64,000 nucleotides of DNA from Tribonema minus (lineage: Eukaryota; Sar; Xanthophyceae; Tribonematales; Tribonemataceae), in NCBI GenBank assembly GCA_017506865.1, contig JAFCMP010000523.1:1-64000 (forward strand), written 5' to 3'. The notes beneath the pieces are model-generated. The model was not told the DNA's origin and ran no database searches. It saw only the letters and a list, made by a program, of their open reading frames with translations. The position numbers and the translations under genes were made by a program. Shown piece by piece: positions 1-64,000 of this stretch; within the stretch, counting starts at the first letter, position 1, and each line of letters begins with the position of its first letter.

Positions 1-3000
1 CTCGAGCTTGGCGCCCGCGTAGCGCGCCACAAACTTCTCCAGGTACTTCTCCCAGATGGGCTTGACGTAGGGGAAGGCAAACAGCCCCACGCCCTTCTCG
101 TACACGGCGAAGGACTCCTCGAAGTATCTGATACGGGAGAGGGGTGGGGGGCCGGGGGTGTCGGAGTCAGCGCTAGCACAGATTGGGGAAGGGGTGACCG
201 GGTTCCAGGGGGGGGGTGGGGGTCAGTGTCAGCACGTGTCGCACGTGTGGTAGGGTAAGGCAAAGAGCCCCATGCCCTTCTCGTACACGGCAAAGGACTC
301 CTCGAAGTATCTGAAATGGGGAGAGGGGTGGTGGGGGGGGGGGGGGGTGTCGGACTCAGCACTATTTAGCTAAGATTGAGAGAGGGTGCGGGTGTGCCAG
401 GGGGGGGGGGGGGGGGGAGGGGTCAGAGTCAGCACGTGTCGATGCTCAGTTCAGCAGCAGCAGCGCCCATGAATGAAATGATGCATTGGGGTAAATGTGG
501 CTAAAAAGCCGGACGGCGCAGAGGCTCAAAACCGCTGCGACACGCGCCAACGCAGCGGCCTCTATGGTGCTGCACAGACCAAGGAGGCCGCCGCCACCAC
601 CTGCCAGATCCTCTGCTGACCTAATGTACCGCATCTTCCTCAGGTGAAAACGCACGCGTGACCAGCGCACACGGACAGCCACGATGGCTCTGCGGGTGCA
701 CGTCAGCGGCAACGCTCCGCACTGTCGAGCGCTGCTTTGCGGCGCCGTCCGCCGCACGTGCCTGCAGCAAAGCCTCAGCCTATTGCAGTTCTCGCGTAGA
801 ACCTCGTTGCGACAGCCGCCGCACGCGCCGACGGCCTCGGAAACAACCTGATTGCGAGGCGCGACACGCCGAGTCCCAGGCGGTGCACAACGCTTCACCG
901 CCCCCCCCCCCCCCCCCGTGCACACCTGTGCTCCTCGAGGAACGTGGTGTAGCAGCAGGGCCTCAACCTCCTGCATTTCTGAGCAGCATCTCATTGCGAT
1001 CGGTCACCGCGCGCCACCAGCCTCGGGACTACACATTGCAAGCGTGACACCCCAGCGTCACAGGCGGTGCACGGCAGATTGTCACGCCGCGCACGCACCT
1101 GTGCTCCTCGAGGAACGTGGCGTAGTTGAGGACCATTCCCGGCGTCGCGACGCGCAGCTCCATGGCGCGGTCGTACGCGGCGCGCGTCGTCTCGGGCGTG
1201 CCGAGCGACTCCTCCAGGTCCAGGTACGTGCTCCACACCTTGGTGCTCTTGTACACCCTGCGCGTGCGCGCGGGGAGGGGGCGGGGGGGGGGGGGGGGGG
1301 CGGCAGTGAGCAGTGTTCTGAATAAGCATCTGCCAGAGTGTCGTGCGCACACAGGGCATGATCGGCGACGTCGCACGCCATGAAAACATTCTCCTGACAC
1401 AGGACACGTTTACCCCGAGGAGCGCATTGACACCATAGGCTGAGCACTGTATACAAGCACTTGAACTGCACAAACTTCGAAGCATTCACATATGTACATG
1501 AATGTTGCATATACTGTACCCACGCGCTGACCGGAACACTCACCTATCCTGCACGGCCGACTCCGCCATGGCCTAGTTGTGCAGATACATATGAATGCAT
1601 AGGAATACATTCATATTACACATACTGTACCCACGCGCATACATATGTATCACCTGTCCTGCACGGGCGACTCCGCCATGGCCTTCTGCGCCGACGCCGC
1701 CGTGTGCCCGCCGGTGAGCCGCCGTCGCTCCACCGCCGCCTCCGGCTCTGCGGCGCACACAGGGTGACAAGGGCATGTAAAGGTAAGCGGCAGCGAGCAG
1801 CGCCGGTGTTTGCGGGGATGGAAATAGGTCAGCGTTGAGCGAATGAATGAGCACGTCCATGCGGTGTATGCGGACAGTGCCGAAGCACGCTGCCGTTGTG
1901 CGATGTTAGTAGGCGAATTCGCGCGCATGACGGGAGGCGCATTTGCGCGCACCGGCGGTCAAGCAGGAGCGTCAGCTGCTTCGCACTCATGCCGGCGCTG
2001 TGCTAGCATGGCGGCGGATCGGCGCCTGCACAACGTGCAGCACCGAACGGCAGGCATGGCAGACGTCAGAACCGTCACATATGGCGAGCGCTGCCGTACT
2101 TCAAGATCTCCGACGCCGGGGCCCCCGTTGAGCGATGCTGTCCAGGCCATTGCCGCGCTCCTTGACCTCACGGCTACCGCTGACTTTAATTTTAACCGGA
2201 CCCTACAGGCCCCTCGACAAGCGACATCTAAGTTCGGAAACTAAAGGCAGACAGCCGCGCTTGCCTGTGCTGATTCTGACCCCCCCTGACCCGAATCCTG
2301 ACCCGACAGCACCGCTCAACAAGTGACACGACAGCGAACAATCAAATGGTGGCCAGCCGTGCTTGCCTGTGGTGGCGCGCTGCACAAACTTGAGTGCCTT
2401 TGTGAAGCAGTCGTGGCGGAGTGAACTTCACAGCTACTGCACATAGAGACGCTAACCCCCCTCAATCGACCTACCCCTGACCTGACCCTAACCCTACAGC
2501 CCCTTTCGCCCCTAATCGGAAAAGCAGCCAGCCACGCTCGCCTGTGGTGGCGCGCTGCATGACCTTAAGCGCCTCCGTGAAGCAGTCGTGGCGCAGTGAA
2601 CTTCACAGTGAAATTCACAGCTACTGCACACCGACACCCTTAGCCCACGACCCTACCCCTCATCTGACCCTAACCCTACAGTGTTGCCCCTGGCTGCGTG
2701 ACCCCCTTTGGCCCTTCTAGTGGGAAAACAGGCCAGCCGCGCTTGCCTGTGGTGGCGCGCTGCATGACCTTGAGCGCCTCCGTGAAGCAGTCGTGGCGCA
2801 GCTCAAAGTCGGCGTAGGCGCACCACACGCTCGCCAGGTCATCCACGTTGCGGTACGTCGGGAGCAGCGCCTTCTCAAAGACGGTGCGCGCGTTGCTCAT
2901 GTCGCCGTGCTCCTCGTAGAATCTGTCGGATAAGGGGGGAGGGGGGGATGGGCAAGTAGGGGGGGTGATGCGGGGTATCAGTGCACACTGCACACGTCAC

Positions 3001-4808
3001 GGCAACACAATTCAAGGTGTGTTTCAGCGATGATAGACACTCAACATCTTCCACAATTTGCCGGCAGCAGCACCGTCTCTAAAGCGGCAGACGCACTGGC
3101 CTGCGACCAGATTTGCTGTAAAGAGCCCAAGTCAGCCATGCGCAGCCTACAAGAAGCCGTTGGGCAGTTCGAGACGTACGAAAGTATAGCTGCACTGCTG
3201 CGAGTTGCGCGCCTGTGCCCCACAAAGCAACTTCAATGGCACGGCGAGAGCGATGGCGATCGCGATCGCGCAGCGTGCACACCACAGACGCCTTGCTGCT
3301 CGCGCAGCCGCGACCGCCAACATCACCCACTTCAACGGACACACATCCGAGACCAACACTGCGGTCGCGCGGTCTCACTCACTTGGCGAACTCAATCCAC
3401 AGGTTGCACAGCTTGCCGACGGCGAGCTTGGGGCTGATGGCCTTGACGGCGTCGGCGTACGTGCGCACGGCGTCCGCGGGCTTGCCGGCGGTCACAAACA
3501 GCTTCACGCGCTTCTGCCACTCGTGGACGTTGTGCGGGTTCTGCCGCAGCAGCACGCTGCGCGGAGCAAGCGGGGGCGGGGGGGGGGGGGGGGGGGGGGG
3601 CACAACGGCAGCGGAAAGCAGTGCTCAGCAGCAGCAGCAGCAGCACGATATGGTGAGTGTTCATGAGGAACATGGCGCTTGCCGCAGATGCCACGCGCAC
3701 ACACGCACGCACGGGAGATGTGCATGCCAGCAAGTGCCTGCACTGCGGCAATCTGCGATCGAACGCCTGCTACACGTGCAACTCTAGGCTGCCATGCACT
3801 GCGCCGCAGTGCTCTGGTGGCAAAAGGCCTGCGGCGGTGGCGATGGCCTCACGGCTCGTATAGACAACGCCGTGTGCGAGCTGTCAACAACTTCAAGAGT
3901 ACCCATGGACTTCAAGCGTGCACCTGGATATCAGGAGCCTCACGGCGCAGGTGCATGGCATTCGCGTTGTGACCTGTCACCAACTTCAAAGTGCACCCAC
4001 TAACTTCAAGTTTGTACCTGAATATCAGGAGGCTGGGCTGTCACCAACTTCAAGTGCAACCACTAACTTCCAGTATGTACCTGGATATCAGGAGCGGGCG
4101 CCGCTCCAGCAGGTGCTCAAGGCGCGCCAAGCGCAGGTCGACGTCGTCCGCATCGTCGTCGAGGTCCGTGTCGGAGTCGGTGCCGGCGGCGTCCTGCCGA
4201 GCGTCACATGCGAAGTCACAAGGCAGTTGAAGATGGTGAAAACGCTGAGTGATGGGGGCGGTGCGGGGCGTCACAGGCGTGGTCGCAGAGCACAGTTGGG
4301 AATCGTGAAAACGCTGAGTCATGGGGGCAGTGCGGGTCTCACGCACAGGAGGCGCGTGAGCGAGATGCAGACCGTACCGGGGTAGGCTGTGAGTTGTTGG
4401 AGTGCACGGGGGTGCTGGCGGCGGCGGTGTGCGGTGGCGAAGGAGCTCGCAGCACGTCTCAGCACGCCACTGCGGGGCGGTCCGTGACAGCAGCCGGTGC
4501 CGTGTAGCCATGTTTGACACACAAATCAGCGAGGTGGCAAAGCAGTACCACAGTGCAAATGTTCTGTACTCGAACGTGCGTGCGCATGTTTCAGCTCATC
4601 ACTGCATCGGCAGTTGCAGGCGGAGGGCAGCACCACGCCGATGCCGCAGGACCTGATGTGCCCATGCCAGCGTGGTACAGCGTGCAATTTCCATGCGCGC
4701 CAGCACATGCTGACTCTGCACGAGCTCCGCAAGGTGTACCACCATACCAGCCAGACACATATGTGTTCAACATACAGAGTGCTACTTAGGCTGACGGCGC
4801 GGCAGCAC

Positions 4809-4843
<35 letters not shown>

Positions 4844-7800
4844 CCTGTGACTCTGACTCACCTCGCCGTCCGAGTCGCCGTCCTCCGCCAGCTGCATCTT
4901 GGCGCTGAGGACGCTCTCCTCAAACTGTGAGTACGCGTCGAAGACCATGGTGAAGTCACGCACGGTGATGACGGTCGTGATGCCCTCCTCGTAGACGTCG
5001 CGCGCACGCTCAAACTGCGGCGCACGCAGCAAGAGCAGAGTGTAGCAGCGGCATACGCGCATATGGACAGGGCGTCAGTGCATGTTCTGTGCACAGGGCT
5101 CAGGCTGCAGTGCGCGCGGCGGCAGCACAGTGTAGCAGCAGCGTACGCGCATATGAACGTAGCGTCAGTCAGCATGGCGGCGGAGACACGCCTGCTCTAT
5201 GCGCAAGGCTCGAGCTGCGGCGCGCGCAGCGAGAGCGGAACGTAGCAGCAGCGGCGTACGCGCACATGCATAGGGCATCAGCATGGTGGCAGAGGCGTGC
5301 ATGTTCTGCGCGCAGGGCGGGGCGGCGAATGCCAAGCGTGGCGCGGTGGGATGGCGTGGTGCGCTGGGGGCAGCATATGAACATGCAGGTGTGCAGGCAT
5401 ACGTGGCGTCATACAGCATGGGGGCGGAGGCGTGCCCGTTCTGTGCCGGCAGGATCGGGGCTGCAGGTCGCAGCGCTTATCGGAGGAGGAGACTTTCGGT
5501 GCGGCATGGTGCGTATATGGTGAGCGCTTGGGACGCTTGACGAGGTGAAGTCGGCGTTTGGACCAGGCGTGTGCTCAGGGAGTGCACGCAGTGCGCATTA
5601 CTGATGCTGCGCCCAGCACACGTTCGAAACACACGACTTGCAAGTATGTATCATGCAAAGAGCTCATGGCTTCTCCTGCACGTGCCTACGGCGCCAACTG
5701 TCACTGTACGCGTGGCTGCACGCTGTCTGTCTGTTGCGATGACCGCCCCCATCCGCCCATCTGGCGCACGCTTTTGCGCCAACCCCTTTGCTTGCCAGTT
5801 TGGGCGCGCCATCGTGTCGAATTGGAGCATCAATTACACAGCCCTCAGCAGTCTTGTCACTGAAGTACAGCGCTGCGTCAATTGAACGGGCTATACATAC
5901 CTGCCCCAGGCGGATGTAGTAGTCCGCCAGCTTGCACCAGAGGCGGCCGACCTCGTCCGTGAAGCGCGTCAGCCCGCTGCGGATGATGGCGTCGACCTTG
6001 AGGCCGCCGCGCGCCACCGCCTGAGGGTGCTTGGCGCACATGTTGCACAGGCGCATCCACATCTGCACGCGCGGGGGGGGGGGGGGCAGCGGCGCGCACG
6101 TGAGTGCGCAATATGTGCAAGTTGGCACGGCATGTACCCAATGGATGTACTTCGAAGTAGGCACTTTGAGGTATGTGCGGCAGGGTATGTGCGCTTAACG
6201 TAGACGCCGCATGGGCGCATTGCATGGCTGCGCCGCAGGAAGCAGCGGCGTGTGCGCGCATGCGCGCGCTTTTGCGGTCTGCACGATATGATGGAGTATG
6301 CGTGTGCGTGTGCAAATGCGTGAGTTGACACGGCTAGCTTGGCGCTGCTGCAGGTCTGACAGTGGTCCCGGCTGTATGTCGTGGCAGTATGTAGCTGAGA
6401 GCCACGTATAGCCTGAGCACAGAGGGGGGTGAAAGAGCTCAACATTCAGGGAGCTGAAGAGGACACTGGTTAACTGGCGTCTACATCAGGCGACTTGGGA
6501 TATCTGACTGAAGTGCTGCCAGTGCTCTTGGTGGCTGTAGGCCACCGTATGTCACCCCATAGCTAGAGTGTGGAAATACTCAGGTGTTGTAAAAAAGGGT
6601 ATGATTTGTTGCGCTGCTCACCTTCGTGGGAGACGAAGCACCTGATGCATCTCATTTGAGTAAAGCATGCTATAGGGTCAAGTGTTGAAATACCAGAGAG
6701 ATCTTGATGCCAGCTTTCTGAAAGGCAGCGGCGTACTCGTTTGCGCACTGTCTCTGTTTCATGGGTCATAAAAGCAGCGCACAGCTGCTGTTATCTGTTG
6801 TCATAAATATCTGCCGCCTATTAACATCCGCAACCAGGCCGCAAGCCCTTGTCAAACTCGTACGCACTGTGTGCAGCGGCTGCTCTGCAGGTCAGCGGTG
6901 ATGTAAAGTCACCAGCTCACCTGATGTCTTGTGTGCCCCTCGGGGCTAATAAAGGACTCATCGTTCACACAGATCGCCAGCTGGTGTGCTGCCTCCTCCC
7001 ACTCCCCCTTCCCTTCCAGGTACTCCACGTATTGCTCCCTGCAACAACAGACGGCGCAAATACAGACAATCAAGTGGATGGCAGATGAGGTTATATGGCA
7101 TAGTGCAAAGCAGCACAAGTGCAAAATTTTTAGAGCAGAAGTGCCTCCTACAAGTGTAGAAAAACTGCGCGTAAGCAGACAACTCGAGTGGATTACAGAT
7201 GAGATCACACGACATGGTGCAAATAAGCTTAAGTGCACGAATGTGTAGTGCAAAAGTGCCGCTAGAAGCACAAATAGCTGCTCTGCGTGTCAGAAAACAC
7301 AGCCGCAGTGGCTTGCTGACAAGGAGCACCCACAACATCATTGGAAGTAGGCACTGCACAGCGCTCAGGAGCACGTGAAGCTGCATGGCGCACGCACACA
7401 AGGTCACCATCGTCAACCCCCGTCGCGCACAGCGCACTTCATCAGAGCCCCCTTCCCCATCCTTTCAGCTCACCTGTGCAGCGGGTCATACATGAGGTAC
7501 CGCCTGTACACCCTGATGGCAGTCTCCTTCACCCCGATGCCCTTGGCCCACTCCAGATACAGCGGCCAGATGCGGTCGTGCTGGGTGATCGGCAGCGACT
7601 GCAGCGCTCTGTCGAAGGCCCTGCGCGCCTGCGTGCCCCTCCTCAGGTGCGTCAGGATCTTCAAGTAGTCCACCCAGATCCTGGGCATCTTGTGCAGGTG
7701 CACCAGAGCCCTCTCGAAGGTGTTGACGACGATCTGACAGGCAGGGTCCGTGATGCACTTGCCCTCCACAGCACTGAGCCTCTCGGTGAGGTACTGATGC

Positions 7801-8009: not shown

Positions 8010-8321
8010 GGTGCCTGTGCTCTATGCTGTGACACCGTGCGGCTCCAGTGCCTTCCCTGCCTTCCAGCTGGTTGAGTGCCGTGCCAACTAGGATGCACTC
8101 ACGAGCACATGGCCAGGATCTTCTGTGGGCCCCGGGTTTCCTCTCGAGTAAACCTCAACTAGAAACCTCAACTCTCAGAGAGGCCGTTTCGAGGCCAGAA
8201 AGAAAGATCGGTGGCTCCTCCACACACACACTCGGAGACAGCGCTCATCATCGGCGGATAGACGACAAGCGGCAACCAGGCAACTTTCGCGCTACACCCA
8301 GCATAGATATACCAAGACAAC
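8010..8321. promoter_or_regulatory. Divergent intergenic region between SYF1 and the F-box-like gene
   Basis: These 312 bp separate two start codons pointing away from each other, so both promoters and 5' UTRs should lie here. I see no TATA box or other named element. A short repeat of AACCTCAACT occurs near 8150-8180. The regulatory role is inferred from position only. Confidence 0.4.
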
Positions 8322-11964: not shown

Positions 11965-12167
11965 CTGATGGACCCTGTGAGGTGGCGGTTACATTAAAAC
12001 TGTAGAGGAGGAAAGAAGTGTGTGTGTGTGTGTGACAGTGCTGTGCTAGCACGTTACGGCGCCTAAGAGCCCATTGCCGACAAGCAGAAGAAGTTCCACG
12101 GCCACTGTTGGGCAAAGCTTTGGCAGAAATGCAGGTCTACTAGTGTTGGCGCCACTCCGCACGCGTC
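11965..12167. promoter_or_regulatory. Short divergent promoter region between CYB5D1-type and EF-hand genes
   Basis: Only 203 bp lie between the two opposed start codons, so the genes very likely share a bidirectional promoter. A TG dinucleotide run of about nine units lies at about 12017-12034. I did not see a clear RFX X-box or TATA box. Regulatory function is inferred from arrangement. Confidence 0.45.
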
Positions 12168-15100: not shown

Positions 15101-16828
15101 CCTACTCACTTCTCTCTGGCGCCCTGAACAACGCATTTTCATCACCGCGCCGTGCCCTGCACGCACGCGTCCTCACACTCGGCTGAGCGCTGTTGCAAAT
15201 ACACTTTTAGCGGTGACCCTACACCCTAACCCTACAAGCCCCCCCCCCCCCGCCCCCGAACGCGCCCGCCCCTGCCTGCGCGTACTGGACAGCCTGAAAT
15301 GGCTGAGCACTGTCACAAATACCCTCAACCCATCTTAACCCTACAACCCCCCTCCCTCCCCCGGCGCAGTTCCTGCGCGTACTGGACAGCCTGAAGCTGG
15401 TCAACGTGGACTCGAGCGCCGCACACGCCCTGTGCCGCCGCTACTCCGCGCGCGACGTCCACCACCGCGCCACCAAGCACCAGTCCTTCGTCCGCTACCT
15501 CGCGTTCGTGAACGACGTGCTCGCGCTGATGCGGCATGACGCGACGCCGCGCGCCGCCGCCAGCGCCGCTGCCGCGGCGGCGACGCAGCAGCAGCGCAGC
15601 GCCGGCGGCGCCTGCGACGGGAAGGTCAGCGGCTGCGGCGGCGGCGCCGGCGCGAGCGGCAGCAGCTGCGGCGACGACGCAACCGTGCCGCGGCGGCGCG
15701 CGCCGCGCGATGCAGCCGCACTGCTGCGCGCGCTGCGCGAGGAGCGCGCGACGCGCCCCTGCGCAGCTGCGGAGCTGCTGCGCGACTTTGACCCGCTGCG
15801 GCACGGCACCGTGACGCGCGCGCAGTTCTCGCGCGCGCTGCGCGCGGCGTCCGGCATCGAGCTGAGCGATGCGGAGGTGACGGCGCTGTGCCGGCGCTAT
15901 GCGGCGGCGGGCGGCGCGGCGGCGGGCGGCGCGGCGGCGGCGGGGCCGCAGCTCGATGTGCTGGAGAGGATCGTGTACAGACCGTTCCTGGCGGACGTGG
16001 ACTGCGCCGTGGCGGTGCCGGAGCTTGAGAAGTGAGTGGAACAAAGGTTTGTTGAACGTGTGGCAGCGGACGGATGAGCGCTGCCGCCTGCTGAGCCGTG
16101 CTTGCTACACGTGACGCCTCATGAAGGGGGGCAGGCGCGTTGTAGTGCTGCCCGCTGCAGCTGCTGTCCGCCGGCCCGCCATTTGTCGTGCCGATGCGGC
16201 AGCGCCTGTGCCGCAGCGCTGCTCAGAGCCCGGATGCTGTCAGGAGCACATCCGAGTGGACATGTGACCCTCAGCATCATGGGTTGAAAGCTGACCACGC
16301 ATGGTGCCGCTACGTGTGCGCGCAGGTGCGACACTCGGCTCGATGTGCGGCGGGCGCTGCGCGAGGCGCGCGGCGGTGCTGCGGGGGCGGGGGACCCTGC
16401 AGCGCGTGCTGGCGCGCCTGCAGCACTGACGACCGATGACGAGGTGAGGCAGCAACTTCAGCACACAATTAATTAGCTGACACCCACTTCTGAGTGCTCA
16501 TCTGGGCGCTGGCGCAAAGTGCATGGCACGTGCTCACAAAGACCGCCGACGGTCGTGCCGATAGTGCTGCGCATAGTAGAACAACAGCGCACACCGATCC
16601 CATCTACATGGACAACATTCACACGTGCGTACTTTTACAGACGCCTCACCATGGGTGGCTCCATCATCATCCCCCCCCCCCCTCCTTGCGTGCTCTGTCT
16701 CTCCCTGAAGCTTTTGTGCGCGCACGGCACCAACACCCAGACGCTTCTCGCTGCACCATGCACCCACATGCGCACACACGCATGCCTTCGACAGCAGCGT
16801 CTCCTCACCACCCTCCGCTGCCGTCACT

Positions 16829-16862
<34 letters not shown>

Positions 16863-47000: not shown

Positions 47001-50000
47001 GATGACCACCACCATGGCGATGAGGTAGAGGATGAGAATGCTGTTGTGGTGCGCCTTGTCGAGCAGCCACGTAGGCAGCGCGATGGACACAGCCATTGAC
47101 TGCTTGCCGTCGGGGTTCCCGTACTTCTCCCAGTTCTCCTTGGACTGCGGCGGCAGCGGCAGCGGCATGCGTGCAGCGTGAGTGAACCAAGTTGAAAGAA
47201 AAGATGTGTCTCAGACAGCAGTGCTGCAGTTGACGTGGGGGACGCCGTCAGTCACCCACATGATGAGTTCAATACTCAAGACTTGCTCAGGACGCAAGAC
47301 TCACTCAGGACCCAAGACTCTGGCCGTGTTGACCGCCCCACGTGCCGCGCATCAGCGCTAGTCGCCTCCTGTCGGATGGCCGCACTGACAGCGCACACGC
47401 TTCAACACGCCGCTAAGTAGAAACAATATCTCGGCGGCGCATGCGGCCACTGTCATGGGCCAGCACACGACGCGGCGCTCCACTTGAACTTCCTTCTTCC
47501 AACTGCACTTCATTTTTCCAGCATGTGCACTGTCGTCGCAGCAAAGCGCGCCGCAGCCTCAACATGATCGCTCGCCTAAACCTGCACCGTCGTGGCCGTG
47601 TCAAACAATTGCGCTCCGCCCCAATCCGCTCCTGAAGGGCGCCAGAGCCCCTGCTGCAGTCGACGCAGGTGTTGCACCCACAACACACACAACACTTACG
47701 CTATGCCTGGCGCACTAAACAAGGAGCGCGACCACACCAGCGGCGCCGCACGGCGCACTGCAGCAGGAGGGTCACATCGGCTGATGCGCACGCCTTCTGT
47801 CGGGGCCAGCACAGCACGCGCCGCGCTCTACTTTGACGCACATCATCGTAGCGAAGCGTGCCGCCTCCAATGACGACAACTGGACAACATGACCGGCGCC
47901 GCGTTGCAGCAGCGCCTTGGCGTCCAAGAGCTACTGTTGTGCGCGTGAGCTTGTACACATATCGTCATAAGGTGCTCGGCGCGTCAAGCAACAACCACAG
48001 ACATGAGAGCGCCGCCGCGCGCCGCGCCGCGCCGTCGCCGCAGCGGGGAGCATAACCTCGGGGTCCGTGAGCACCTGGCATGCACGCGTCAACGGCAGCG
48101 TCGGCGAGTCCAGAGCGCAGAGCAGCCACTTCGCCGCGCCGCAGCGGGAGAGTCACGTTGGGGTGTGCGAGCGCCTGGCGCGCGCGCGCGATCCATGTGC
48201 ACATGCAATTGCACGGTGTTCAGTGCACCGAGCAACAAGAACACTACAGGCATGGGAGCACCGCCGCGTGCCACGCCGCGCCGCACCGCGCCGCGCTGCG
48301 CCGCAGCGGGGAGAGTCACCTTGGGGTCTGGTACGCGCGCGCGATCTTTATGGACATACGATCGCAGAGTGCTCCGCACATCAGGCAACAACCGCACCGC
48401 AGCTGCACGGTGCTGGCCGCTTCAAGCAACAACAGCCACGCCGCAGCGGGGAGAGTCAGTTACCTTGGGGTCCGTGAGCGCCTGGTACGCGCGCGCAATC
48501 TTCATGAACATGTCCTCCGCCATCTTGCTGCCGGGGTTCTTGTCGGGGTGGTACTGCAGCGAGAGCGTGCGGTACGCGCGCTTGATCGCCTTGGGCTCCA
48601 CGCCGACGTCGATGCCGAGAATCGCGTACGGGTCAAACTGCGCGAGGCTCACGGCGCCGCCGTCCATCGTGGAGACGAGCGCTGCGCAGGAGGGGGGGGG
48701 GGGGGGCAGCGTTGAATGAGTGAGTCACTCACTCGGGAGGGAGCGAGTCGTGGAGACGAGCGCTGCGCGCGGGCGGGCGGGGGGGGGGGGGGGGGAGAGT
48801 CACTCACTCACTCGGGAGAGAGCGAGTCGCGGCGGTGAGGGGCGCGTGCACGTCTTGTGCGGCTCAAGCCGAGGCGACAGTGCAGCGGTCTAGTCACTTG
48901 AGGCGCGGCCGTAACGGACTGTTTTGACACCTTCCAGATGGTGCCTGTGATGGACTGTGGTTGCCTTGAGCTGAGACTGAGCATGCGGAAGCGGAATCCA
49001 CGTCGCCATCAGGGTCAAGTACGAATCCAATCTGCGCCAGGCTCGCTGCGGCCGCAGTGCACCGCAGGCGCGCCGAATCGGCAATGCGGATGCATGCATG
49101 CACCACACAGGTGATGCGCTTCACATGTGGTTGCTACAGTGCCCAGAAGAATACGGTGGTGGCCAGCACAATGCGTGGGGCCCGCAGCGCAAGAGCCAGG
49201 GTGCCGCTGACCGTTAAGCCTTATGTTCAAGTTGAACGTTGCGGTTGAAGTTGAACCATCACAGAGTCCCTCTCAGTGACTTTGCTGGATGATTGTCATC
49301 AAAGAGCTAATGACTGCCTACTTTGACAAACTCATGGCCATGTATGGAAAGTGCCACTGCAATCAGCCACTTCCCCCCACTCCCTGTACAGCCCTTTCCC
49401 CCACTCCCTGTACCTGCAGAGCCACGCACGCACTGCCGATATCACCTCTACGCACAATGCACATGCGTTGAGGCCACAAAGTGTGCGCAGAATCAGCAAG
49501 CTGCATGCGATGATTATGACGGCGCACTTAAGCTGCATGAGCCTAAATCGCCATTGATCAAGTTGTATTTTTAGTTGAAGTTCAAGAAAGCGGAAAGGAG
49601 TCTGGCGTCCATCCAATGTGCTACATGCTCGACAGGAAACCTCTGGCCCGATTGCTGCCGAGGCATCAGAGTCCACCACACGCTACACAGTGCATCGACA
49701 GCAAACGCAGCGTATAGGTCTGGCAGCCTCGCCACTTGAAGTTAAGCACGCCAACCACTCTTTCACTGAAGGTGATTGCTTCAGCCAGAATGTTGAGGAT
49801 CCGGTCGCATGAAAGCATTAAATCGTGCGGGCAGTCGTGGCATTCTTTCTGCCATCACTGCAGAACACGCGGCTCATCTTAACCCTACGCAACTGACAAA
49901 TCACAACTGGTGAGTGCTGCTGCGTAAAGCAGATGCCTGCAAACCTGCACGGCATCGCGCACCTTGCCGGTGCCCCAACGCGTGAAAGCCGCGACAAAGA

Positions 50001-51419: not shown

Positions 51420-52167
51420 TGCAGGACAGCTGGAGCTGGGTTCTCCAGCGGCCTACTGCTGCACGTGAGTACCTGGAATCGGCACGACGGGAGCAAGACA
51501 AGGCTAAGCAGGTGGTTCGCGGCAGCAGATCATCGCCGCCTCGCACCACCATGTGCAGAGCGGGAGGGATTAGTGTTTTTCGTCCACACGTGGTTGTAAC
51601 AGAACTCCTGAAGTTGAGTTTCCCGACGACAGCCACAAGCTGATAGGCGATCGAGGGCTTCGAACAAGAGGCCACACCCTTCTCAGCTAGTGTTGTTGCC
51701 CTGCCGCCGTGCAAGTCAGTCGAGTGGGCCCTGAACTGTGTATGCAGGTGTGTCTAGCGAAGCTGCACATGACGTGACCACTCGGCTGCACACTCGCCTG
51801 ACCCAAAATTGTTGGCGCGCCAGTAAAAAGGCCCGAACAGAACAAGATGCACCACTCACCTCAAGCGCGCCGTGCCAGGCGTGGTTTCCTCCTAGGTCTC
51901 ACAGGGTATTAAGTGTCATACCCTACCGTACGTATACCCCGCCCCAACTTCCTCCGAAATGAACAGGTGCTTAACGCGTTGTCGGCGACCGTACGCGTGT
52001 ACCCTCCCCCGTGCGCCTTCCGTCTCTTTCTGGAGGCCACGACTCCATCCGAATAGCGCCCTGCTGTTCGTGAGGGTTTAGCTCACTCGTCGCAGCAGTC
52101 CCGAATTGGGTCGCTAACCGCACAGGAGAGGGAGCCTCGCCTCCGCGTGGCGCGGATCAAGCGCGCC
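51420..52167. promoter_or_regulatory. Divergent intergenic region between SEC63 and the secreted repeat-protein gene
   Basis: These 748 bp separate two opposed starts. Both promoters should lie here. I see no TATA box or other recognisable element and no gene of its own. Confidence 0.4.
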
Positions 52168-55100: not shown

Positions 55101-58100
55101 TTGTACTAGGCAACAGTGGAGTAGCTAAACACTCATAGCGTACGTGCGTTTGCCATGGACTGGGAGCCGCAATTGCTTGCAGTGATCGTGACTGTTGAAG
55201 TGTTCAAGCACGCACACTTGTGCAATGCACAAGTGTGCAATGCACAAGTGTGCAATGCACTGACCATGCATACTGTGCAGGTGCCTATGTAGAGGTGTCT
55301 ATCCAGCATACGTGAAGCATACACCTGGCAGCTTAGGGTAAGGGTTAGCAGCGCGCTAGCTCATCCGCCGCGCAGCTGGCATGTTGGCAGTGGCTGGCGT
55401 GGCACGTTCTGGAGCCGCGGGGTGCACAACGGCACCGCACTCTCTTAGACAATTTGCTGTGTAGACGCATAGAGGGCGTCCTCTTACACGATTGCTGTCC
55501 ACCCACTGGCCACTGGTTTGTGTTATGCGACTAAACTCTGTGGGGCATGCCTGCACAAGCGACTACTTCGCGGCCTGGGAGGCATCACATTCGTGGTCCT
55601 GCGCATCAGCCCCATGATTGTGTAACCATGTCCGCTGGGATGGCAGTCGCGTCTCAGCAGCAGCCAAACCCTTACCCTTGTTGAGCGGCACTCCGGGGGC
55701 TGTGGGTCGCCGCCGTCCGCAACACGCGTGATTGTGCACTTCAGCGCGATGCGCTTGCACGCATCTCCGCGCACGTACGAGTGTCGTACAGGCACCGCGG
55801 TGCGTTGCATCGACAACACCTGAGCGGGCGCACACAAATTGTATGGTCATGTGCTCAGCGCTCAGCACACACCACTGAGTAGGTGCATGCCTCTGCTCAA
55901 ACTGCCCGCGCCAGAGGCTGAGCAAGGCATCCCAGTAGCTGACAGTTTCAGCAAGACGGCCATCGTGTGTGCCGTATCTGCTGCGCGTTTCGGCACAAGA
56001 CGGCGTGCTGCCCCTGGCGACATTGGCAGATTCAACTGTATGACTCGTATGGCGCCATGATGTTCATCTCTTGAGGGCATCCAGATGTACACCGGTTGTA
56101 GCTGGATGCTTGGAGGGATGCTCCTCGTTTCATGACAGCAACCAACGTTTGCTGCGCCTGCATGCACGCACAGCGCACCGCGTCCCCTTGCCCCCCTTCG
56201 TTGAAATTGAACTCACCAACTTCAACCCGTGACGCTGCCCACCCCACCCCCCCTCCCCCCCGCCGCCCATCAGCTCAACGACGTGGAGATCCTGGGTAAC
56301 GGCATTCAGGTGGCGACCGTGTACCCGACCCCCGACGTCGAAGCGTCCGACGCCCTCGTCTACACGACGACGCCGCCGAACCTCATCGTCAACGGCACCA
56401 ACTTCAACATCAAGCACACGGCGCTGTTCTTCGACCCGCCGCTGCAGGACGGTGAGCGCCGTGCATAGCTGCCGCGCGCGTGCGTGCGTGCGTGCGTTCA
56501 TGTGTGCACGATGGAGCATGGGCTGCACTAGTGCAGCTGGTGCGTGCGTGCGTGTGCGCGTGATCACACGTGGCGGCGGCACTGGCGCAGTTGACGCGGC
56601 GCCGCCGGCGGCGTCGTCCGTGCCCCCGTGCCCATGCGCTCGCGACGCACGGCGCTGCCTGACGCTGAATCATGCTGCGCAGCGGAGGCTCGGCACTGCG
56701 CAGCGCTGCCGGCCTCTCGGCAGCTCGCGCAGCAGAATTGCGCTGCGCTCTGCTTTTCACCCGTGCGTGTTCACGTCGATCTGCCCTCGTGCGAGGGCCC
56801 GCGGGCGGCGCGCGCACGCGCTGAGCAGCTGCCATGCACGCACGCGCACGCTGACCTGAGCGCTGCTGCTGCTTGTGCTGACGCTCCTCTGTGCCTGTTT
56901 GCAGGCGTGGACATCAGCACGCAGGTCGTTTCCCCCACCCAGATACTGCTGGTGAAGCGCTACGGCAAGATGTGGCGCTCGGAGGGGCCGGGCCCCCTTA
57001 AGCTGGTGGCGATAGACACAGGTGATTATGCGTTTGGTTCGAACTTGTTTGTTGGCGTGTGGTTGTGAGCGTACGCAATCAGAAAGTAGCCTCTCCAGTT
57101 GATCGATGGACAGACGCCAGGTATCTGCTGCATGTAGATTTTTGGACCAGTTAACTATTGGGATTATCATTTTTGGTAACAAGTCCGTCGTCAAGGATTA
57201 GATTGTGAAACATCTGTGCAGGCGTGTGCGGCGTGATCACCGCCACGCAGCACTGCAGTCGTGTTCCTGAGTGCGAGGCCTGTGCGCGCCTCAAAAACGA
57301 CATTGGCGCTGCCTCTCGCACGCAAGCCTTGCGTGCAACGGCTTACATGGCCCCACTCAGTGAACCTGCTGCTGCTGGCACGTCACACTTGAAGTAAACT
57401 TCGGTCTATGTACGGCCAGTCGTTGTGACGCTATCTTTTGTGGCAGTTTCAGCGCTGTGCAGAAGCTTTGCTCATGGGGCTGACTGTGGAATGCTATGAA
57501 GAGCACATCTCGCGCGCTGGCCTTTGACCGCGACGGCTGTGAGGGCACCCACGCGTCAATGACTTGCTCACGCTTGTCTTGGCAAGTCACCTCTCTCATG
57601 TGACTCTAGTGCGGCGTGTCTGTTGGCTGTGGCTGTGCCCAGCACACAAATGATGCAATACCTGAGTCTGCTCGACCCTGCGCAGCCACGTTGAATCTCA
57701 ATGGTGCGTCAGCATCAAACGCGAACAATCGCCAACGCCTTACACACAGGTTGTCTGTGAAAACCCTGCCGAACAACACAAATTGACGCTGGGGTCGTTA
57801 CCTGCTTGGCGCACTTTTGTCCCTTGGCGAGCTTATGCGGATGGAGCGGCGCATGCAAACTTTAAGTTGAAGTACGTATCATGCGCGCGCTCAAACAACG
57901 TCTCATTGCAAACGGCACCCACTTAGTGCGCGCGCTCTGCATGCGCCCCGAGTACAAGATGCTGGGCGTCTTGAAATCACCTAACCCTTACCCCAACCCT
58001 AACCCTCACCACCGACGGCACACGCTCAGCGCTCATCAAGTCGTACTACCGCGTGCTTTGGAAATGGTGCTTGGTGCCCAGGAACCGAGTGCTTCAGCCC

Positions 58101-61100
58101 TGACCCATACCTCAACCCTAACCTGACCCACAGCAGCACAGTCAGAGTACACGTTGTTCACGGGTGTCTTTGACGGCGCAGCATCAGCGCTCATCACGTC
58201 GCGTGCTCCGAATGGTGCTCTGTGCGCAGGCGGCGGGCGACTGCCGCTCGACCCCGACACCAACGAGTTCAATCCGCTGTGCGTCTTTGACAAACCTAAC
58301 CCTGACCCTCACTGCGGACGGCACATGCTCAGCGCTCAATGAGTTCAATTCGCTGTGCATCTTTGACAAACCTAACCCTAACCCTCGCTGCGTACGGAAC
58401 ATGCTCAGCGCTCAACGAGTTCATTTCGCTGCGCGTCTTTGACAGACCTAACCCTCGCCCTCACTGCGGACGGCACATGCTCAGCGCTCAAAGAGTCGCG
58501 TGCTGCGTGCTTTGAAATGGTGTGTTGTGCGCAGGCGGCGGGCGCCTGCCGCTCGACCCCGACACCAATGGGCGCATCATCATCGCGCTTCAACCCTAAC
58601 TTTGACCTCAGCCCTAACCCTGACCCAGTCAGAGTACACGTCGTTGGTGGGCGTCTCTTACAATGCAGCATCGGCACTCATCAAGTCGCGTACCGTGTGC
58701 TTCGAATGGTGTGTTGTGCGCAGGCGGCGGGCGCCTGCCGCTCGACCCCGACACCAAAGGGCGCATCATCGCGGAGGTGCAGGCGGATCGCGAGGGGCAC
58801 GGCGTCACCGTGGAGACGCACGTGGAGAAGCACGTGAGTCGCACAGCCTAGACAGACAAATCTTTTTGATGGTGGCTGAAGCTAGTTAATTTGTACTGTT
58901 CCACGTTGAGTTCCTCGTAGGAATCGAACACGTGTTTGAGGCGTTATCAGCCCCACAAGTGTTCAGCTTAAACCACTGAGCTGTCAGACCACGGTGCCTA
59001 TCACCATGCCGACGGTGGCGGGCGACAGTACATGCTCGCGTCAGCAGCATCGCTTCACATGATGTGAAGTGCGAGAGCCTGCACTGGCGCCTGCTGGCAT
59101 CAAACAAATCATGGACGGCACCACATGCTCCCCCCCCCCCCGCCCCCCCCCCCCTGCGCAACAATACACCTTTCAACAGCGCCTCTGCACACTCTATCTG
59201 CAGAGAGCGCGTCTCCCATGCACGCCTACACAACTCCCACGCACAGAACATGCCCTGCTCACCCCCCTCCCCCTTCCCCCCCCCCCCCCCCCCCCCCCGT
59301 CCGCTACCCCCCCCCCCCTGCACCGCCGCCACTCAGATCTACCAGTCCACGCCGACGCTCGAGATCGACGGCGTCGGCTTCAACCCCGACGGCACGCAGC
59401 TGCGCTTCGCCAACGGCCTGCGCGGCGGCGGCGCCAATTACACGGCGAGCACTGTCACGCCGACGCGCATGACGCTCGACCTCGCACCCGGCTCCAAGTG
59501 GCGCGGCAACGTCGATAATCTGCCCGGCGCGCTCGTGCTGCTCGCCGCCGACGCCGGCGCCGGGTTCGTCGCGCTCGGCGCCACCGCCGTCAAGTCCGGC
59601 CGCAAAGTCGCCACGGTGAGTAAATCCCGAGTGACTCTGAGTCGCAAGACAGTCAGGACTCATGGTGCGAGTGACTCTGAGGTGCCAGTGAGTCAGGACT
59701 TGCCGCATGCGTGGTTAGTCATCCAGGTTAGGTGCTGTGCAGCTGGATGGAACAGCGTTGTGGCAGACACTGGCGCCGGCTTTTGTCGTGCTCGGCGCCA
59801 CCGCCGTCAAGTCCGGCCGCAAGGTCGCCACGGTGAGTGACTCCGAGTGTCAAGTGACTCGGAAATCACAATGTGCGTGGTTCATGTCGCGCTCGGCGCC
59901 ACCGTCGTCAAGTCCGGCGCAAGGTCGCCACGGTGACTCATGATTCATGACGCATGAGTGACTCAGGACTCGCAATGCGCGTGGTTCATGTCGCGCTTGG
60001 CGCGACTGGCGTCAAGTCCGGCCGTAAGGTCGCGACGGTGAGTAGTGACTCAGAGTCGCGAGTGACGTGGGACTCGCGGTGCATGCGGTTCATTGTCTCA
60101 GGTTAGATGCTGTGCAGCTGGAGTCACCTCAGGCACGATCTGCGCGCTCTGTCCAGCATCTCGCCGAGCTGCGTCGCCCAATTGTGTTGTACGCTTGCTC
60201 GTGGACAACGGCGCGAGTACATCACGCAAGCGTACAGTGGTGATGACGCATCGGGCATCGCAGCCGCGAGGCTGCGGCAGCGCAGCGTGCCGCCGCCGCC
60301 ATCATCCTCGCTCGATGCTGAAGTTCCGACCAGCATACGCCCACTGCATTCCGCAGCGTCACAATGAGGCGGCGCCTGCGTGACGCCAAAGCGCACTGTG
60401 TGGCATCGCTCCGCGCGCAGGTTTACGAGGACCCCAGCGTGAAGGCCAGCGAGGTGGAGATATTCCGCACGCACACGCACACGCTGTCGATACAGGGCGC
60501 CGGCTTCAACGACGAGTTCAGCCCCGTATTCAAGTTTGAGGGGGACCACCTGCAGCCCAGGTGCGCGCCCGTCGCGTGCCGCCGCTAAACTGATTTGGCA
60601 GTGCGGCGATTACAGAAGGACGTTAGAGATACCGCGGAGAGGGGGCTTCATGACATTGTTGCGAGCTACGTTGCCGTGCAAAGTCGGCTGCTCTTACCTC
60701 CGGCGGCCGGCGCAGGTGCTACGTCGTGTCTCGCGAACTCTCATACGTGCGCCATCCTACAAGTCGTATTCAGTCTGCGCCATCACCATCAGCTCGCCTG
60801 CATTGTGGCGCCGGCAGTCGCGAGAGGAGGTGTGCTCTGAGCACTGCGTATCTTCTCGAGCCCCCCCCTCCCCCCCTCCCCTTCCGCGCACCCCCAATTT
60901 TGGCCACACTTTGGACTATTCCTCGTAGCTCATCGCCGCAGCGCATACAATCAGAGCCGCAGCTGCCACCGCTCTGCACGAGCTGTGCCTTTTACCCCCA
61001 GCTGAAGTTTTTTTGTCCCCCCCCCCCCCCCATGCCGCCACCCCTTTCGCGCTGCCGCCGCTGCGCAGGAAGGACTACTACGTCAACGTGGTGAACCGCA

Positions 61101-64000
61101 CGCACGTGGACCTCATGCTGACAACGGACGACGCGTGGGCACCCGCCGCTGGTCCCCTCAAGGTCGTGTCCGTCGACACGGGCGCGGGGCCGGTGAGTAG
61201 CTTCAATTGAAGTTGGGGCGTGCGCCTCGCTTGAACTTTGTGCCTTGTGTGTGCGCGACGCGCTGAGCGGCGCGGCCTGTTTGTCACTGCTTCGGCAGCA
61301 GCTCTCATGATGACCCTAACCTTAACCCTGCACGCGCTCAAACCTAAGCCTACACGTGCTCAAGTTGTGCGAAGGCCACGCATGATGGCACGGCACGGTG
61401 GGACTCGTCACCGCGCAGCGTGCATGCGCGGCCCAGCAACGCGCCCCTTCCCCAGGTGGCGCCAACGCACCTCGCGGCATGCGCGCCTGCGCGCTGCAGG
61501 CGTCAACCCCAAGACTTTGTTTAATCGCTTGAGAGACAGATCCCATTCATCCTTTCATATGCCTTGGTCGCTCCTACGACTCATCGTGTGGCGCGCTGAT
61601 TCGCTGTGCGAGCGCGCAGGTGGCGCTGGAGCCGCCTGTGACGGTTGCGGAGGTCGTGGACGACACGGCGGAGCACCCCAGCGGCGTCACCGTCACGCCG
61701 TCCAACACGCAGGTCATCTACCAGTCGGACGCGTCGCGCGAGATCAACATTGCAGGCACGGGGTTCAATGTGAGTGACTCCCCTCTTTGCGCGTGCGCAG
61801 CATTCATCGGTGCTTGTGTCGCCGCAGATGCTTCCTTTTCCGATGCGGTGGGAGCCCGCTGTGCGCTGCTGCTGCTGCTGCTGCTCGCCGCGGCCGTGCC
61901 TTGCAGGCCAGCAGACGCAATGGCGCTGCCATGCCGCCTCTTACGGTTCGTGCGAGCGCATCTATGTCAGCGCCTTCTCTTGCGCAGCTTTCACCGCACA
62001 TCCTGCAGGCGTGCAGCGAAACTGTACTGCACACACAGCAACGCACGGCATCGACAGCTCCCCCCACTGAACACCCCCCCCCCCCCCTTCCCCCCAACTA
62101 CCCTTCCCCAGAGCCACCCCACGCTGGTCTTCGACCCCCCCCTGAAGGCGGGCACCAACTACACCGTCGTCGCGGCCGTGGACACCATGATCACGCTGCG
62201 CCTGCAGCCCGGCAAGAAGTGGCGCGAGGCGGCGGGCCCGCTCATGCTCATGTCCATCGGTGCCGGCGCGGGACCGGTGCCGCTGGGCGGCAGCAAGGGC
62301 ATCAAGGTGCGTGTGTGCAGCAACACGCAGTACGAATGCGATTAGGCAAGACAACCGAAGCGCGCCAGGCGCCGGCCGCGTCCGCCGGGGGCGCTCGCCA
62401 TTTCTCGCTCAGTGTATATGCGCAGCATGGCGTTGGCAGTGCTGGTGACGGCGTTGGCGCAGGACCGGTGCCGCAGGGCCGCAGCAAGGGCATCAAGGTG
62501 AGCGGGCGCGGCGCGCGCGCGCGGCGGCGGCGGTGGCAGCGGCGGCAGCGCCGCGGAGGTGCTAACCGGGATCAGACAGGGCTGCTGCTGCGCGCGAAGC
62601 GCCGGTGGCAGCGTTGCTTCACCGAGGCCATGGCCTGTCATGCGAACATTCATGGGCCATGCCCTGTTGTCCCGTGGGCAGGTTGGGCGAACAGCGCAGC
62701 GTGCGCGCGCGTGCGCATGAGGGCAGCGGCGGGTAGCACAACCGATGATTCACCTGCTCGGCGCACGAGGCGTGCGCGCGTCATTGCCGCACGCGCGCTT
62801 CATGAATGCGGCAGCTGCAGGCACAGCATTGCGGCCGATGCCTCCATGGCGGCCGCTGGGCGGCAGCAGACAGACGCCACTAGCAGCAACAATCGCCATG
62901 AGCACTTCGTACGCGCGCTTGCCAACACCGATCGCGATTGCTGCCTGTCACAAGTGTTCTCTGCAATGTGGACCGGCATCAGCTCACATGCGCCACCACC
63001 CGCGCATTGATGCCCCCCCCCCCCCTTTGCGCGCAGGTGGCGTTCATCCTGGCGGACCCCACGGTGAAGGAGGAGAACCTGCGCATCTACGCGACGCACT
63101 CCAAGCACTTCAAGTTCTCCGGCTCCGGCTTCCTCCAGCAGTTCAACCCGTACCTCAAGCCCATCGTGGAGCTCGCCGGCGTGCCGGCGGACGTCTTCAA
63201 GGTGGACTCCAACTGGACCCCCACGTGAGCCCCCCCCCCCCTTCCCAATGTACTTCAATTTGAAGTTGGTTTCAATGCAGGTGCCATGAAGAGCGAGCAA
63301 GTCTCGGTGCGCTGCCTCGCGCTGCCGTGCGCAGTGTCGTGCGCTGCCTCGCTAATCGTGGCCGCGACGGCGCAGCGTTGACTGCAGTTGACGGCGGACT
63401 CGAAACGCGCGTGCACCTCTGTGCGTGCACACGCGTTCGGTACCCCCCTCAGCAACGAGCGTGCTCGCGCACGAATTACGTCCGTACGCACCTCTCACAA
63501 GCACATCAGCCACCCTCCTTTGACGCACCATGTGTAGAAGGGTCGTCATGCCCTGCACACGTCTCCTAGGTTTCCCTTGCAGCCGAGCAGCTGACCGCAC
63601 GCGCTGCTGCTGCCATGCCCCCCCCCTCCCCCCTACTCTAAACCCCCACGCAGGTCCATCCAGCTGCTTCTGAATGAGGGCAAGTCCTGGGCGAAGCTCA
63701 GCGGCGCGGAAACCGCCTCCCTGAAGGTCTCCAAGATAGACACCGGCGCGGGCCTGGTAAGTGCGGCGCCAAGCGGTCGTGCCGTGAGCGCTGCCCGGCA
63801 AAAGCCGTTTGCTGCTGGGTAAGCGCTGCTTGTCGTTTGGCAGGGCGGCGGAGCTCTTGCGAGCTCTTGCGGTTAACAATAGATGAGGCGCACAGCGGCG
63901 CGTCTGTTCTTAACGTGTGGGCCGGCCTGCGCTGCGCAGCATCGTACTTGCCAGGGTGCAACTCAGATGAAGCTGTGACGGCGGCGGCGTGGGACTTGTG
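52168..64000 (+). CDS. Secreted protein with tandem IPT/TIG-like repeats; 3' end beyond window
   Basis: Exons: 52168-52233, 53196-53426, 56274-56451, 56905-57021, 58724-58833, 59337-59615, 60421-60560, 61069-61192, 61620-61769, 62112-62306, 63037-63224, 63654-63756, then a GT donor leading out of the window. They give 627 codons in one frame. Exon 1 alone encodes a signal peptide (MVCAFSVRALCLALVAAWA, then MGE). At least six repeats of about 75-115 residues follow. The shared pattern is an aliphatic-Y start, L-x-I-x-G-x-G-F, then F-x-P-P-L-x-x-G-x-N-Y, T-x-M-x-L-x-L, G-x-x-W, G-P-L-x-L and a closing IDTGAG box (for example INIAGTGFN, LVFDPPLKAGTNYTV, LQPGKKWREAAGPL). The G-x-G-F strand start recalls IPT/TIG immunoglobulin-like folds. 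I do not know the family by name. Introns cut the repeats at irregular places. A surface or extracellular role is inferred. A small extra exon between 52234 and 53195 cannot be excluded. Confidence 0.75.
54400..54860. repeat. Two tandem copies of a 220-bp unit in intron 2 of the repeat-protein gene
   Basis: CTCGGACCGCTGATTTTCTG (from 54414) and ATCGGACCGCTGATCTTCTG (from 54633) start matching blocks, and the later phrase CAAGCACGCATTGGCATC recurs 220 bp on. There is no open frame or recognisable exon, so this differs from the exon-edge copies. Confidence 0.85.
55213..55262. repeat. 15-bp tandem repeat forming a hairpin
   Basis: About three units of ACAAGTGTGCAATGC. CACTTGTGCAATGCACAAGTG at its start is self-complementary, so the tract can fold on itself. 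Confidence 0.85.
57980..58770. repeat. Complex tandem array: acceptor-edge copies of exon 5 plus CCCTAA-like units
   Basis: The exon 5 start and acceptor of the secreted repeat-protein gene (58721-58762) are preceded by copies at about 58520-58560 and 58225-58262, all reading GCGCAGGCGGCGGGCG and then TGCCGCTCGACCCCGACACC. Between them, units of about 75 bp with CTTTGACAAACCTAACCCT and GCTCAGCGCTCAA repeat three times (58285-58480). A related block lies at 57990-58085. Confidence 0.85.
58909..58990 (-). ncRNA. tRNA-like sequence (pseudogene or tRNA-derived SINE head)
   Basis: On the minus strand CAGCTCAGTGG (58983-58973) resembles an A box and TGTTCGATTCC (58930-58920) resembles a B box, each with about one mismatch. 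A CTGATAA loop-like stretch lies between them. Acceptor and T-stem pairing is poor and the D-to-anticodon spacing is too long for a working tRNA. It lies antisense within intron 5 of the secreted repeat-protein gene. Confidence 0.4.
59280..59320 (+). repeat. Poly-C tract ahead of exon 6 acceptor
   Basis: Near-continuous C runs directly upstream of the acceptor at 59336; another long C run lies at about 59130-59154. They are an example of the C-homopolymer 3' splice-site tracts seen across the window. Confidence 0.8.
59540..60050. repeat. Four copies of the exon 6 donor edge in the secreted repeat-protein gene
   Basis: The functional exon end and donor (about 59540-59625) are followed by copies at about 59762-59842, 59884-59940 and 59988-60046. 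All contain CGTCAAGTCCGG and end in CGACGGTGA or CCACGGTGA. Indels break the frame in the copies. Confidence 0.9.
62258..62510. repeat. Donor-edge duplication at exon 10 of the secreted repeat-protein gene
   Basis: The end of exon 10 with its donor (62258-62312) recurs at about 62440-62500. The shared phrase is GCAGCAAGGGCATCAAGGTG; the copy is otherwise diverged. Confidence 0.85.

What the first reader, a model, noticed from the sequence alone, without database searches (positions are those of the whole stretch)
1..64000. Introns grow by tandem duplication across exon-intron borders
In five of the six intron-containing genes I found intronic copies of the adjacent exon edge with its splice site. 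Donor-edge copies always lie downstream of the real donor and acceptor-edge copies always upstream of the real acceptor. A direct duplication spanning a splice junction, spliced at the outer sites, lengthens the intron without changing the protein. Over a dozen independent cases in 64 kb imply an ongoing, genome-wide route of intron expansion, leaving arrays of decoy splice sites.
Basis: partly seen in the sequence, partly recalled or inferred. Interest (0 to 1): 0.88.

Follow-up and report, generated by a model that had tools for sequence, protein, structure and literature searches.

The report
Introns lengthened by duplicated exon edges
In this algal genome many introns contain extra copies of the neighbouring exon's edge, splice site included, left by local DNA duplications that seem to have lengthened the intron without changing the protein, and these duplications sit at exon borders more often than random placement would give.

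Summary
With a gene finder trained on this genome (38 loci, 290,662 nt), 83 of 446 exon edges (68 of 223 introns) have a copy of their exonic edge inside their own intron, against 3 for inverted sequence and 2.6 for introns of other loci. In the window it is 13 of 152 edges, in five genes. The copies come from direct local duplications, mostly with units of about 110-240 nt; one adjacent pair is 177/177 identical. Donor and acceptor edges are hit equally. Where testable, protein homology runs across the outer sites. Of 95 copies that keep the splice dinucleotide, 3 could be used in frame without a stop. Array ends lie from 75 nt inside to 25 nt outside an exon edge in 63 of 83 arrays, against 20.0 expected. 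The excess is smaller but persists with exons masked and with another repeat finder. So intron growth by junction-spanning duplication is well supported; why junctions are preferred is open. Use of the outer sites is inferred, as no RNA was available.

The parts
67..441 (-). SYF1: edge of exon 1-127 (acceptor side) and its upstream intronic copy; pair 67-241 / 250-441; the gene finder called the copy an exon (245-310)
   Evidence: self-alignment 78.8%; SYF1 homology runs on without the copy
764..1125 (-). SYF1: donor edge of exon 1099-1257 (junction 1098) and intronic copy; pair 764-952 / 952-1125, directly adjacent
1495..1684 (-). SYF1: donor edge of exon 1654-1747 (junction 1653) and intronic copy; pair 1495-1574 / 1606-1684
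2283..2801 (-). SYF1: donor edge of exon 2747-2922 (junction 2746, a GC donor) and two intronic copies that also carry GC
   Evidence: pairs 2283-2596 / 2474-2801 and 2351-2421 / 2731-2801; sequence
3880..4095 (-). SYF1: donor edge of exon 4081-4193 (15 exonic nt) and intronic copy; pair 3880-3938 / 4037-4095
   Evidence: not among the 13 edges
5002..5471 (-). SYF1: acceptor edge of exon 4862-5014 (13 exonic nt) and intronic copy; pair 5002-5225 / 5201-5471
   Evidence: not among the 13 edges
15369..15369 (+). EF-hand gene: acceptor junction of exon 15370-16031 with an upstream intronic copy (26 exonic nt aligned)
30317..30531 (-). POLA1: donor edge of exon 30476-30696 (junction 30475) and intronic copy; pair 30317-30385 / 30463-30531
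   Evidence: POLA1 homology continuous across the outer junction
35321..35690 (-). POLA1: array reaching 10 nt into the acceptor edge of exon 35193-35330; pair 35321-35508 / 35501-35690
   Evidence: not among the 13 edges
37552..37877 (-). POLA1: acceptor edge of exon 37399-37584 (junction 37584) and upstream copy, adjacent units 168 nt apart; pair 37552-37722 / 37720-37877
   Evidence: 78.5% identity
45807..46198 (-). SEC63: donor edge of exon 46141-46342 (junction 46140) and intronic copies
   Evidence: pairs 45834-46029 / 45980-46195 and 45807-45885 / 46123-46198
46293..46529 (-). SEC63: acceptor edge of exon 46141-46342 (junction 46342) and upstream copy; pair 46293-46345 / 46477-46529
47897..48512 (-). 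SEC63: donor edge of exon 48464-48681 (junction 48463) and intronic copies; pairs 47897-48205 / 48132-48512 and 47941-48088 / 48337-48495
48667..48829 (-). SEC63: acceptor edge (junction 48681), probably the two-copy tandem array of about 80 nt period found here
   Evidence: TRF; edge copy with 15 exonic nt; that the two are the same is inferred from position
57992..58770 (+). IPT-like gene: acceptor edge of exon 58724-58833 (junction 58723) with upstream copies; pairs 57992-58263 / 58447-58757 and 58261-58581 / 58413-58770
59547..60093 (+). IPT-like gene: donor edge of exon 59337-59615 and three downstream intronic copies (about 59784, 59885 and 59989 onward), each with GTGAGT or GTGACT
   Evidence: sequence; one search counts it at 59832
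62258..62512 (+). IPT-like gene: donor edge of exon 62112-62306 and intronic copy; pair 62258-62321 / 62449-62512 (copy called as an exon, 62477-62497)

Best explanation
DNA-level tandem duplication of a unit mostly of about 110-240 nt that starts within about 75 nt of an exon's end, usually inside the exon, and runs past the splice junction into the intron. The gene goes on splicing at the outermost donor and acceptor, so the second copy of exon edge plus splice site becomes intron, the intron grows by one unit and the protein is unchanged. Shown: direct local copies crossing the junction, equal numbers at donors and acceptors, adjacency of units in many cases, a spread of identities up to 100%, and a concentration of arrays at exon edges beyond random placement. 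Inferred: that the outer sites are the ones used (homology, frame and stops; no RNA). Also inferred: that copies are tolerated because a decoy site without the rest of its exon is not recognised as an exon (exon definition). Not known: whether the concentration at junctions is a mutation bias or selection.
For: Edge copies 83 of 446 against 3 (inverted) and 2.6 (other loci). They cross the junction in 128 of 156 copies with at least 15 exonic nt, 67 donor and 61 acceptor (score at least 22, where the inverted control gives 16). Homology continuity: SYF1, POLA1 donor 30475, kinesin introns in L040, L045 (two) and L051. Decoys that keep the site: 3 of 95 in frame and open. Array ends from -75 to +25 of an exon edge: 63 of 83 against 20.0 +- 3.8, maximum 35 in 1000 placements in collapsed introns. 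In the better supported genes (SYF1, SEC63-POLA1, kinesin loci L039-L058) 41 of 49 (no separate expectation). Exon-masked detection: 26 of 76 arrays continue into the exon against 12.4 expected, 0 of 2000 simulations, with present-day intron lengths. Masked arrays of at least 80% identity: 9 of 16 against 1.9. TRF arrays: 22 of 42 against 9.0, maximum 16. One adjacent unit pair is 177/177 identical.
Against: Masked arrays under 70% identity show no excess (3 of 23 against 5.1), those of 75-80% little (3 of 15 against 1.7). A cruder expectation for masked arrays gave 0.21-0.23 against 0.34 observed, inside the range of its 1000 simulations (maxima 0.37-0.38). The conserved exon half and the undeletable real edge favour junction arrays; I reckon up to about 4-fold in the unmasked test (reasoned, not computed), so the residual preference is perhaps 2- to 4-fold. 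Arrays away from exons exist: 14 of 83 at 25 nt or more, in the window for example 31511-31707. Gene models are ab initio outside homologous regions, with 51 called exons of 45 nt or less, some of them copies.
Confidence: 0.83

Rival explanations
1. Unbiased local tandem duplication: units fall anywhere, and only those that leave the protein intact survive, so junction-spanning ones are a by-product of geometry and of better detection.
For: Geometry alone predicts 20-30% of tolerated arrays to cross one junction. The exonic part stays more similar (median identity 0.89 against 0.82 in the intron part), which aids detection. Purely noncoding arrays exist (25 of 104). Old masked arrays show no excess, and one cruder masked test is within its simulations.
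Against: Observed 36 of 61, 63 of 83 array ends near exon edges against 20.0, and an excess that persists with exons masked and with TRF, strongest in the youngest class.
Confidence: 0.2
2. Intron birth by tandem genomic duplication of exonic segments with AGGT, so that the introns themselves are duplicated exon.
For: 7 of 267 introns pass each of two tests (exon 1 end like intron end; intron start like exon 2 start) against 1.3 expected.
Against: Of the seven best in each test, 8 of 14 involve a called exon of 45 nt or less, probably an edge copy. The copies carry intron start or intron end sequence, which a purely exonic duplication would not have.
Confidence: 0.04
3. The copies are alternative or mutually exclusive exon ends used in some transcripts.
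For: 51 of 67 donor copies and 44 of 61 acceptor copies keep the dinucleotide; 27 of 51 and 21 of 44 of those score above the lowest quarter of real sites.
Against: Only 3 of 95 are in frame and open; distances to the real site show no preference for multiples of three; site bases are kept about as often as neighbouring bases.
Confidence: 0.05
4. Assembly artefact or gene-model artefact.
For: The gene finder is ab initio and called some copies as exons.
Against: Most copies differ from the edge (median identity 0.89 exon part, 0.82 intron part); the contigs of these loci run from 45 kb to 2.0 Mb; homology confirms exons in SYF1, POLA1 and kinesins; removal of all called exons of 45 nt or less does not weaken the array-end result (56 of 71, 63 of 83).
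Confidence: 0.02

Closest known systems
Intron gain by tandem genomic duplication (reviewed in PMC3443670, passages read)
   Same: Tandem duplication at the DNA level; splicing at the outer sites removes the extra copy and leaves the coding sequence intact.
   Different: There an exonic segment with AGGT creates a new intron; here the unit spans an existing junction and lengthens an existing intron. The birth signature was found in few introns, over half of the best hits involving called mini-exons.
Introner elements (Amoebophrya, PMC7789003, passages read; PMC9860276, search listing only)
   Same: Repeats that change intron content across many genes of a protist genome.
   Different: Introners recur in many genes and, in the cases described, carry inverted repeats; here copies match their own locus and hardly ever other loci (2.6 of 446), and inverted pairs within 500 nt are few (7 in 38 loci).
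Intronic minisatellites and local tandem duplications from break repair (recalled; no paper read on this)
   Same: Direct adjacent units, variable copy number, decay with age.
   Different: Arrays are tied to exon edges and include a splice junction.
Duplicated splice-site competition constructs (Reed and Maniatis 1986, recalled; no call)
   Same: Two copies of one splice site with its exon edge compete in cis.
   Different: Here the competition is natural, occurs at many sites, and the outer site appears to win.

Membership tests
Tandem genomic duplication (intron gain) | tandem duplication in direct orientation | tested here: met
   174 direct against 7 inverted pairs within 500 nt
Tandem genomic duplication (intron gain) | duplicated unit is exonic and contains AGGT that becomes donor and acceptor of a new intron | tested here: not met
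   units include intron sequence on one side; birth signature 7 of 267 in each test against 1.3, 8 of the 14 best with a called exon of 45 nt or less; a few true births are not excluded
Tandem genomic duplication (intron gain) | intron absent in a close relative | not testable with these tools
   the search tool holds no relatives of this genome
Introner elements | near-identical introns in many unrelated genes | tested here: not met
   exon-edge queries match introns of other loci in 2.6 of 446 tests; 40-mers sampled every 200 nt are shared by one pair of loci only. Only 38 loci were compared
Introner elements | terminal inverted repeats or target-site duplications | tested here: inconclusive
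   inverted pairs are few (34 in all, 7 within 500 nt); target-site duplications were not looked for
Exon duplication / mutually exclusive exons | whole exon duplicated with both splice sites and usable frame | tested here: not met
   3 of 104 arrays duplicate whole exon(s) against 3.5 expected; 36 arrays hold one partial edge, median 37.5 exonic nt; 3 of 95 decoys in frame and open
Intronic minisatellite | tandem array of direct repeats | tested here: met
   60 TRF arrays with period 60-500 in 38 loci

The most novel reading that the evidence does not exclude
Exon-intron junctions are hot spots of a duplication process with a unit near 170 nt (about one nucleosome repeat, recalled) whose exon-side break falls within about 75 nt of the junction, so that introns grow from their ends inward and their interiors are decayed copies of their own edges. 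The outermost splice sites win over near-identical competitors.
Probability: 0.4. Interest if true: 0.85.

Novelty: new variant of a known kind. Interest (0 to 1): 0.68.

Why it matters
How introns lengthen is usually put down to transposons and random insertions (general knowledge). Here is a visible, apparently still active route that uses the gene's own junction, leaves the protein alone, and marks each event with a datable copy of exon sequence. In effect it is a large natural experiment on how the spliceosome chooses between near-identical splice sites: with RNA reads, it would directly test whether outer sites win because a decoy lacks the rest of its exon. It is also a practical warning: gene finders can call the copies as exons, as ours did.

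Tried and rejected
Intron birth by exonic tandem duplication was tested and set aside as the main cause. Use of decoys in frame was tested and found unlikely. Purging of decoy sites was tested: at the site bases the copies match about as often as at neighbouring bases (donor G 0.88, T 0.80; acceptor A 0.85, G 0.87; all positions within 15 nt 0.67-0.97), so there is no clear sign of selection against or for them. A frame rule for unit length: distances mod 3 show no excess of 0 (17/25/24 donor, 23/16/22 acceptor). RNA-mediated copying was judged unlikely because donor and acceptor copies are equally common, while a splicing intermediate would keep only one kind (reasoning, not a test). Microhomology at breakpoints could not be settled: 12 clean two-copy events gave length minus offset from -22 to 20. 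The first edge test counted the window twice (found; the training did so too) and let an edge's own intron into its control; it is not used. In a masked set, 27 of 50 arrays not seen to cross still lay within 30 nt of an exon against 5.8 expected, but masking itself cuts arrays at exon edges, so I do not count this as separate evidence. Rows dropped before the main count: of 104 independent arrays 19 hold more than one exon edge or are all exon and 2 have both copies exonic. Genome-wide counts with other protein families failed because the tool did not complete. The organism was not identified; high GC, GC donors and light-harvesting genes fit a haptophyte or other alga (haptophyte GC of 58.7-73.3% in a table of PMC11347835, passages read). 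Passages of PMC8724738 and PMC12081236 were looked at and not used.

Full report
WHAT WAS CHECKED. The window (64,000 nt, 62% GC) belongs to a genome of 158 Mb in 554 contigs with light-harvesting genes (PF00504), so a photosynthetic alga. I trained a splice-aware gene finder on coding seeds from kinesin hits and window genes. On 38 loci (290,662 nt; the window, 30 loci fetched as kinesin regions and 7 fetched through a low-complexity match) it gives 279 introns, median 491 nt, with 250 GT and 29 GC donors. The window genes are SYF1 (PDB match over residues 9-604 of 604), an EF-hand gene (a weak Pfam match below its cut-off), SEC63 (recognised by recall from the translation, not searched, and fused with POLA1 by the gene finder), POLA1, and a repeat protein that I recall as IPT/TIG-like (two pieces gave no Pfam hit).

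THE COPIES ARE REAL. Direct repeats outnumber inverted ones, 174 to 7 within 500 nt. With called exons of at least 46 nt, 83 of 446 exon edges have a copy of their exonic edge in their own intron, 42 donor and 41 acceptor; the same test gives 3 for inverted sequence and 2.6 for introns of other loci. In the window it is 13 of 152 edges, in five genes. Of 156 copies with at least 15 exonic nt, 128 cross the junction (score at least 22; the inverted control gives 16). Examples are printed: the P-loop exon of a kinesin (L051) followed by two decayed copies with their donors; an L042 exon with two identical 177-nt units (177/177) and a third, older one; POLA1 and SYF1 in the window.

WHICH SITES ARE USED. 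No RNA is at hand. Among 25 introns flanked by called exons that match the kinesin profile, 7 have edge copies: one in L040, two in L045, three calls in L051 (two of them halves of one intron, split by a called mini-exon) and one in L029. The profile runs on across the outer sites: 98 to 97 in L040, 242 to 244 and 291 to 289 in L045, 280 to 280 in L051. In the other L051 intron the hits 13-94 and 97-280 flank a copy that itself matches 73-95. L029 has an overlap (300 to 287) and is less clean. SYF1 aligns to solved homologues across its outer junctions, and POLA1 across the donor at 30475; the POLA1 acceptor at 37584 lies outside the part searched. Of 95 copies that keep the dinucleotide, 92 would bring a stop or a frameshift or both, and 3 would not. 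The gene finder itself avoids stops, so this is not independent of its choice of the outer site. Many decoys are still strong: 27 of 51 donors and 21 of 44 acceptors score above the lowest quarter of real sites.

IS IT MORE THAN RANDOM DUPLICATION? Random placement of the same units predicts 20-30% of tolerated arrays to cross one junction, by four variants of the null; 36 of 61 do. Measured by array ends, in introns from which detected duplications were collapsed and with small exons removed, 63 of 83 lie from 75 nt inside to 25 nt outside an exon edge (20.0 +- 3.8 expected, maximum 35 of 1000), and 14 lie 25 nt or more into noncoding DNA (46.9 expected). Part of this is detection, because the exon half diverges on one side only. 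With exons masked, so that arrays are found on noncoding DNA alone, 26 of 76 continue into the exon against 12.4 expected from real divergence profiles at present-day intron lengths; a cruder expectation gave 0.21-0.23 against 0.34, within its simulations (maxima 0.37-0.38). TRF gives 22 of 42 against 9.0. By identity of masked arrays: at least 80%, 9 of 16 against 1.9; 75-80%, 3 of 15 against 1.7; 70-75%, 11 of 22 against 3.1; below 70%, 3 of 23 against 5.1.

HOW IT PROBABLY WORKS. A DNA duplication of mostly 110-240 nt (arrays reaching into an exon: median 172.5, 10-90% range 121-236, n = 42) begins inside the exon near its end and runs into the intron. Outer splicing turns the extra copy into intron. 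The exonic part is short (median 37.5 nt, random 59), as expected if a longer copy were more likely to be taken for an exon. Equal numbers at donors and acceptors argue for DNA-level duplication. Detected duplications make up about 12% of intron length (11.8% removed on collapse), and introns with edge copies are somewhat longer (median 579.5, n = 76, against 472, n = 189; p = 0.047). Whether breaks are more frequent at junctions (GC falls from 0.66 in the exon end to about 0.55 within 75 nt of intron) or selection keeps such duplications is open.

WHAT IS KNOWN. Tandem duplication as a source of new introns is established (PMC3443670, passages read). Ten full-text searches listed no paper that, by title and start of abstract, treats intron lengthening by junction-spanning duplications. 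Searches listed only part of their hits, and the library lacks most subscription journals, so this is weak evidence of novelty.

Noticed in passing
introns of the 38 loci: The 8-mer AACTTCAA / TTGAAGTT is strongly over-represented in introns (91 against 1.4 expected from base composition, both strands) and is scattered, often as short runs.
   Followed up: partly
introns of the 38 loci: Telomere-like CTAACCC is common in introns and strand-biased near acceptors: 28 within 140 nt upstream of the acceptor against 0 for GGGTTAG (89 and 64 in all). It may supply CTAAC branch points.
   Followed up: partly
all loci: About 10% of called donors are GC (29 of 279), and copies of a GC donor can keep it (window 2283-2801).
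   Followed up: no
L048 4318-5004: The start of this intron resembles the start of the next exon, including the acceptor-side AG; possibly an acceptor-edge copy lying close to the donor.
   Followed up: no
window 51742-64000: A protein of repeated units that I recall as IPT/TIG-like, without Pfam hits in the two pieces tested.
   Followed up: no
L004 731-1216: Five 27-nt called mini-exons, starts about 90-160 nt apart, probably copies of one exon edge.
   Followed up: no
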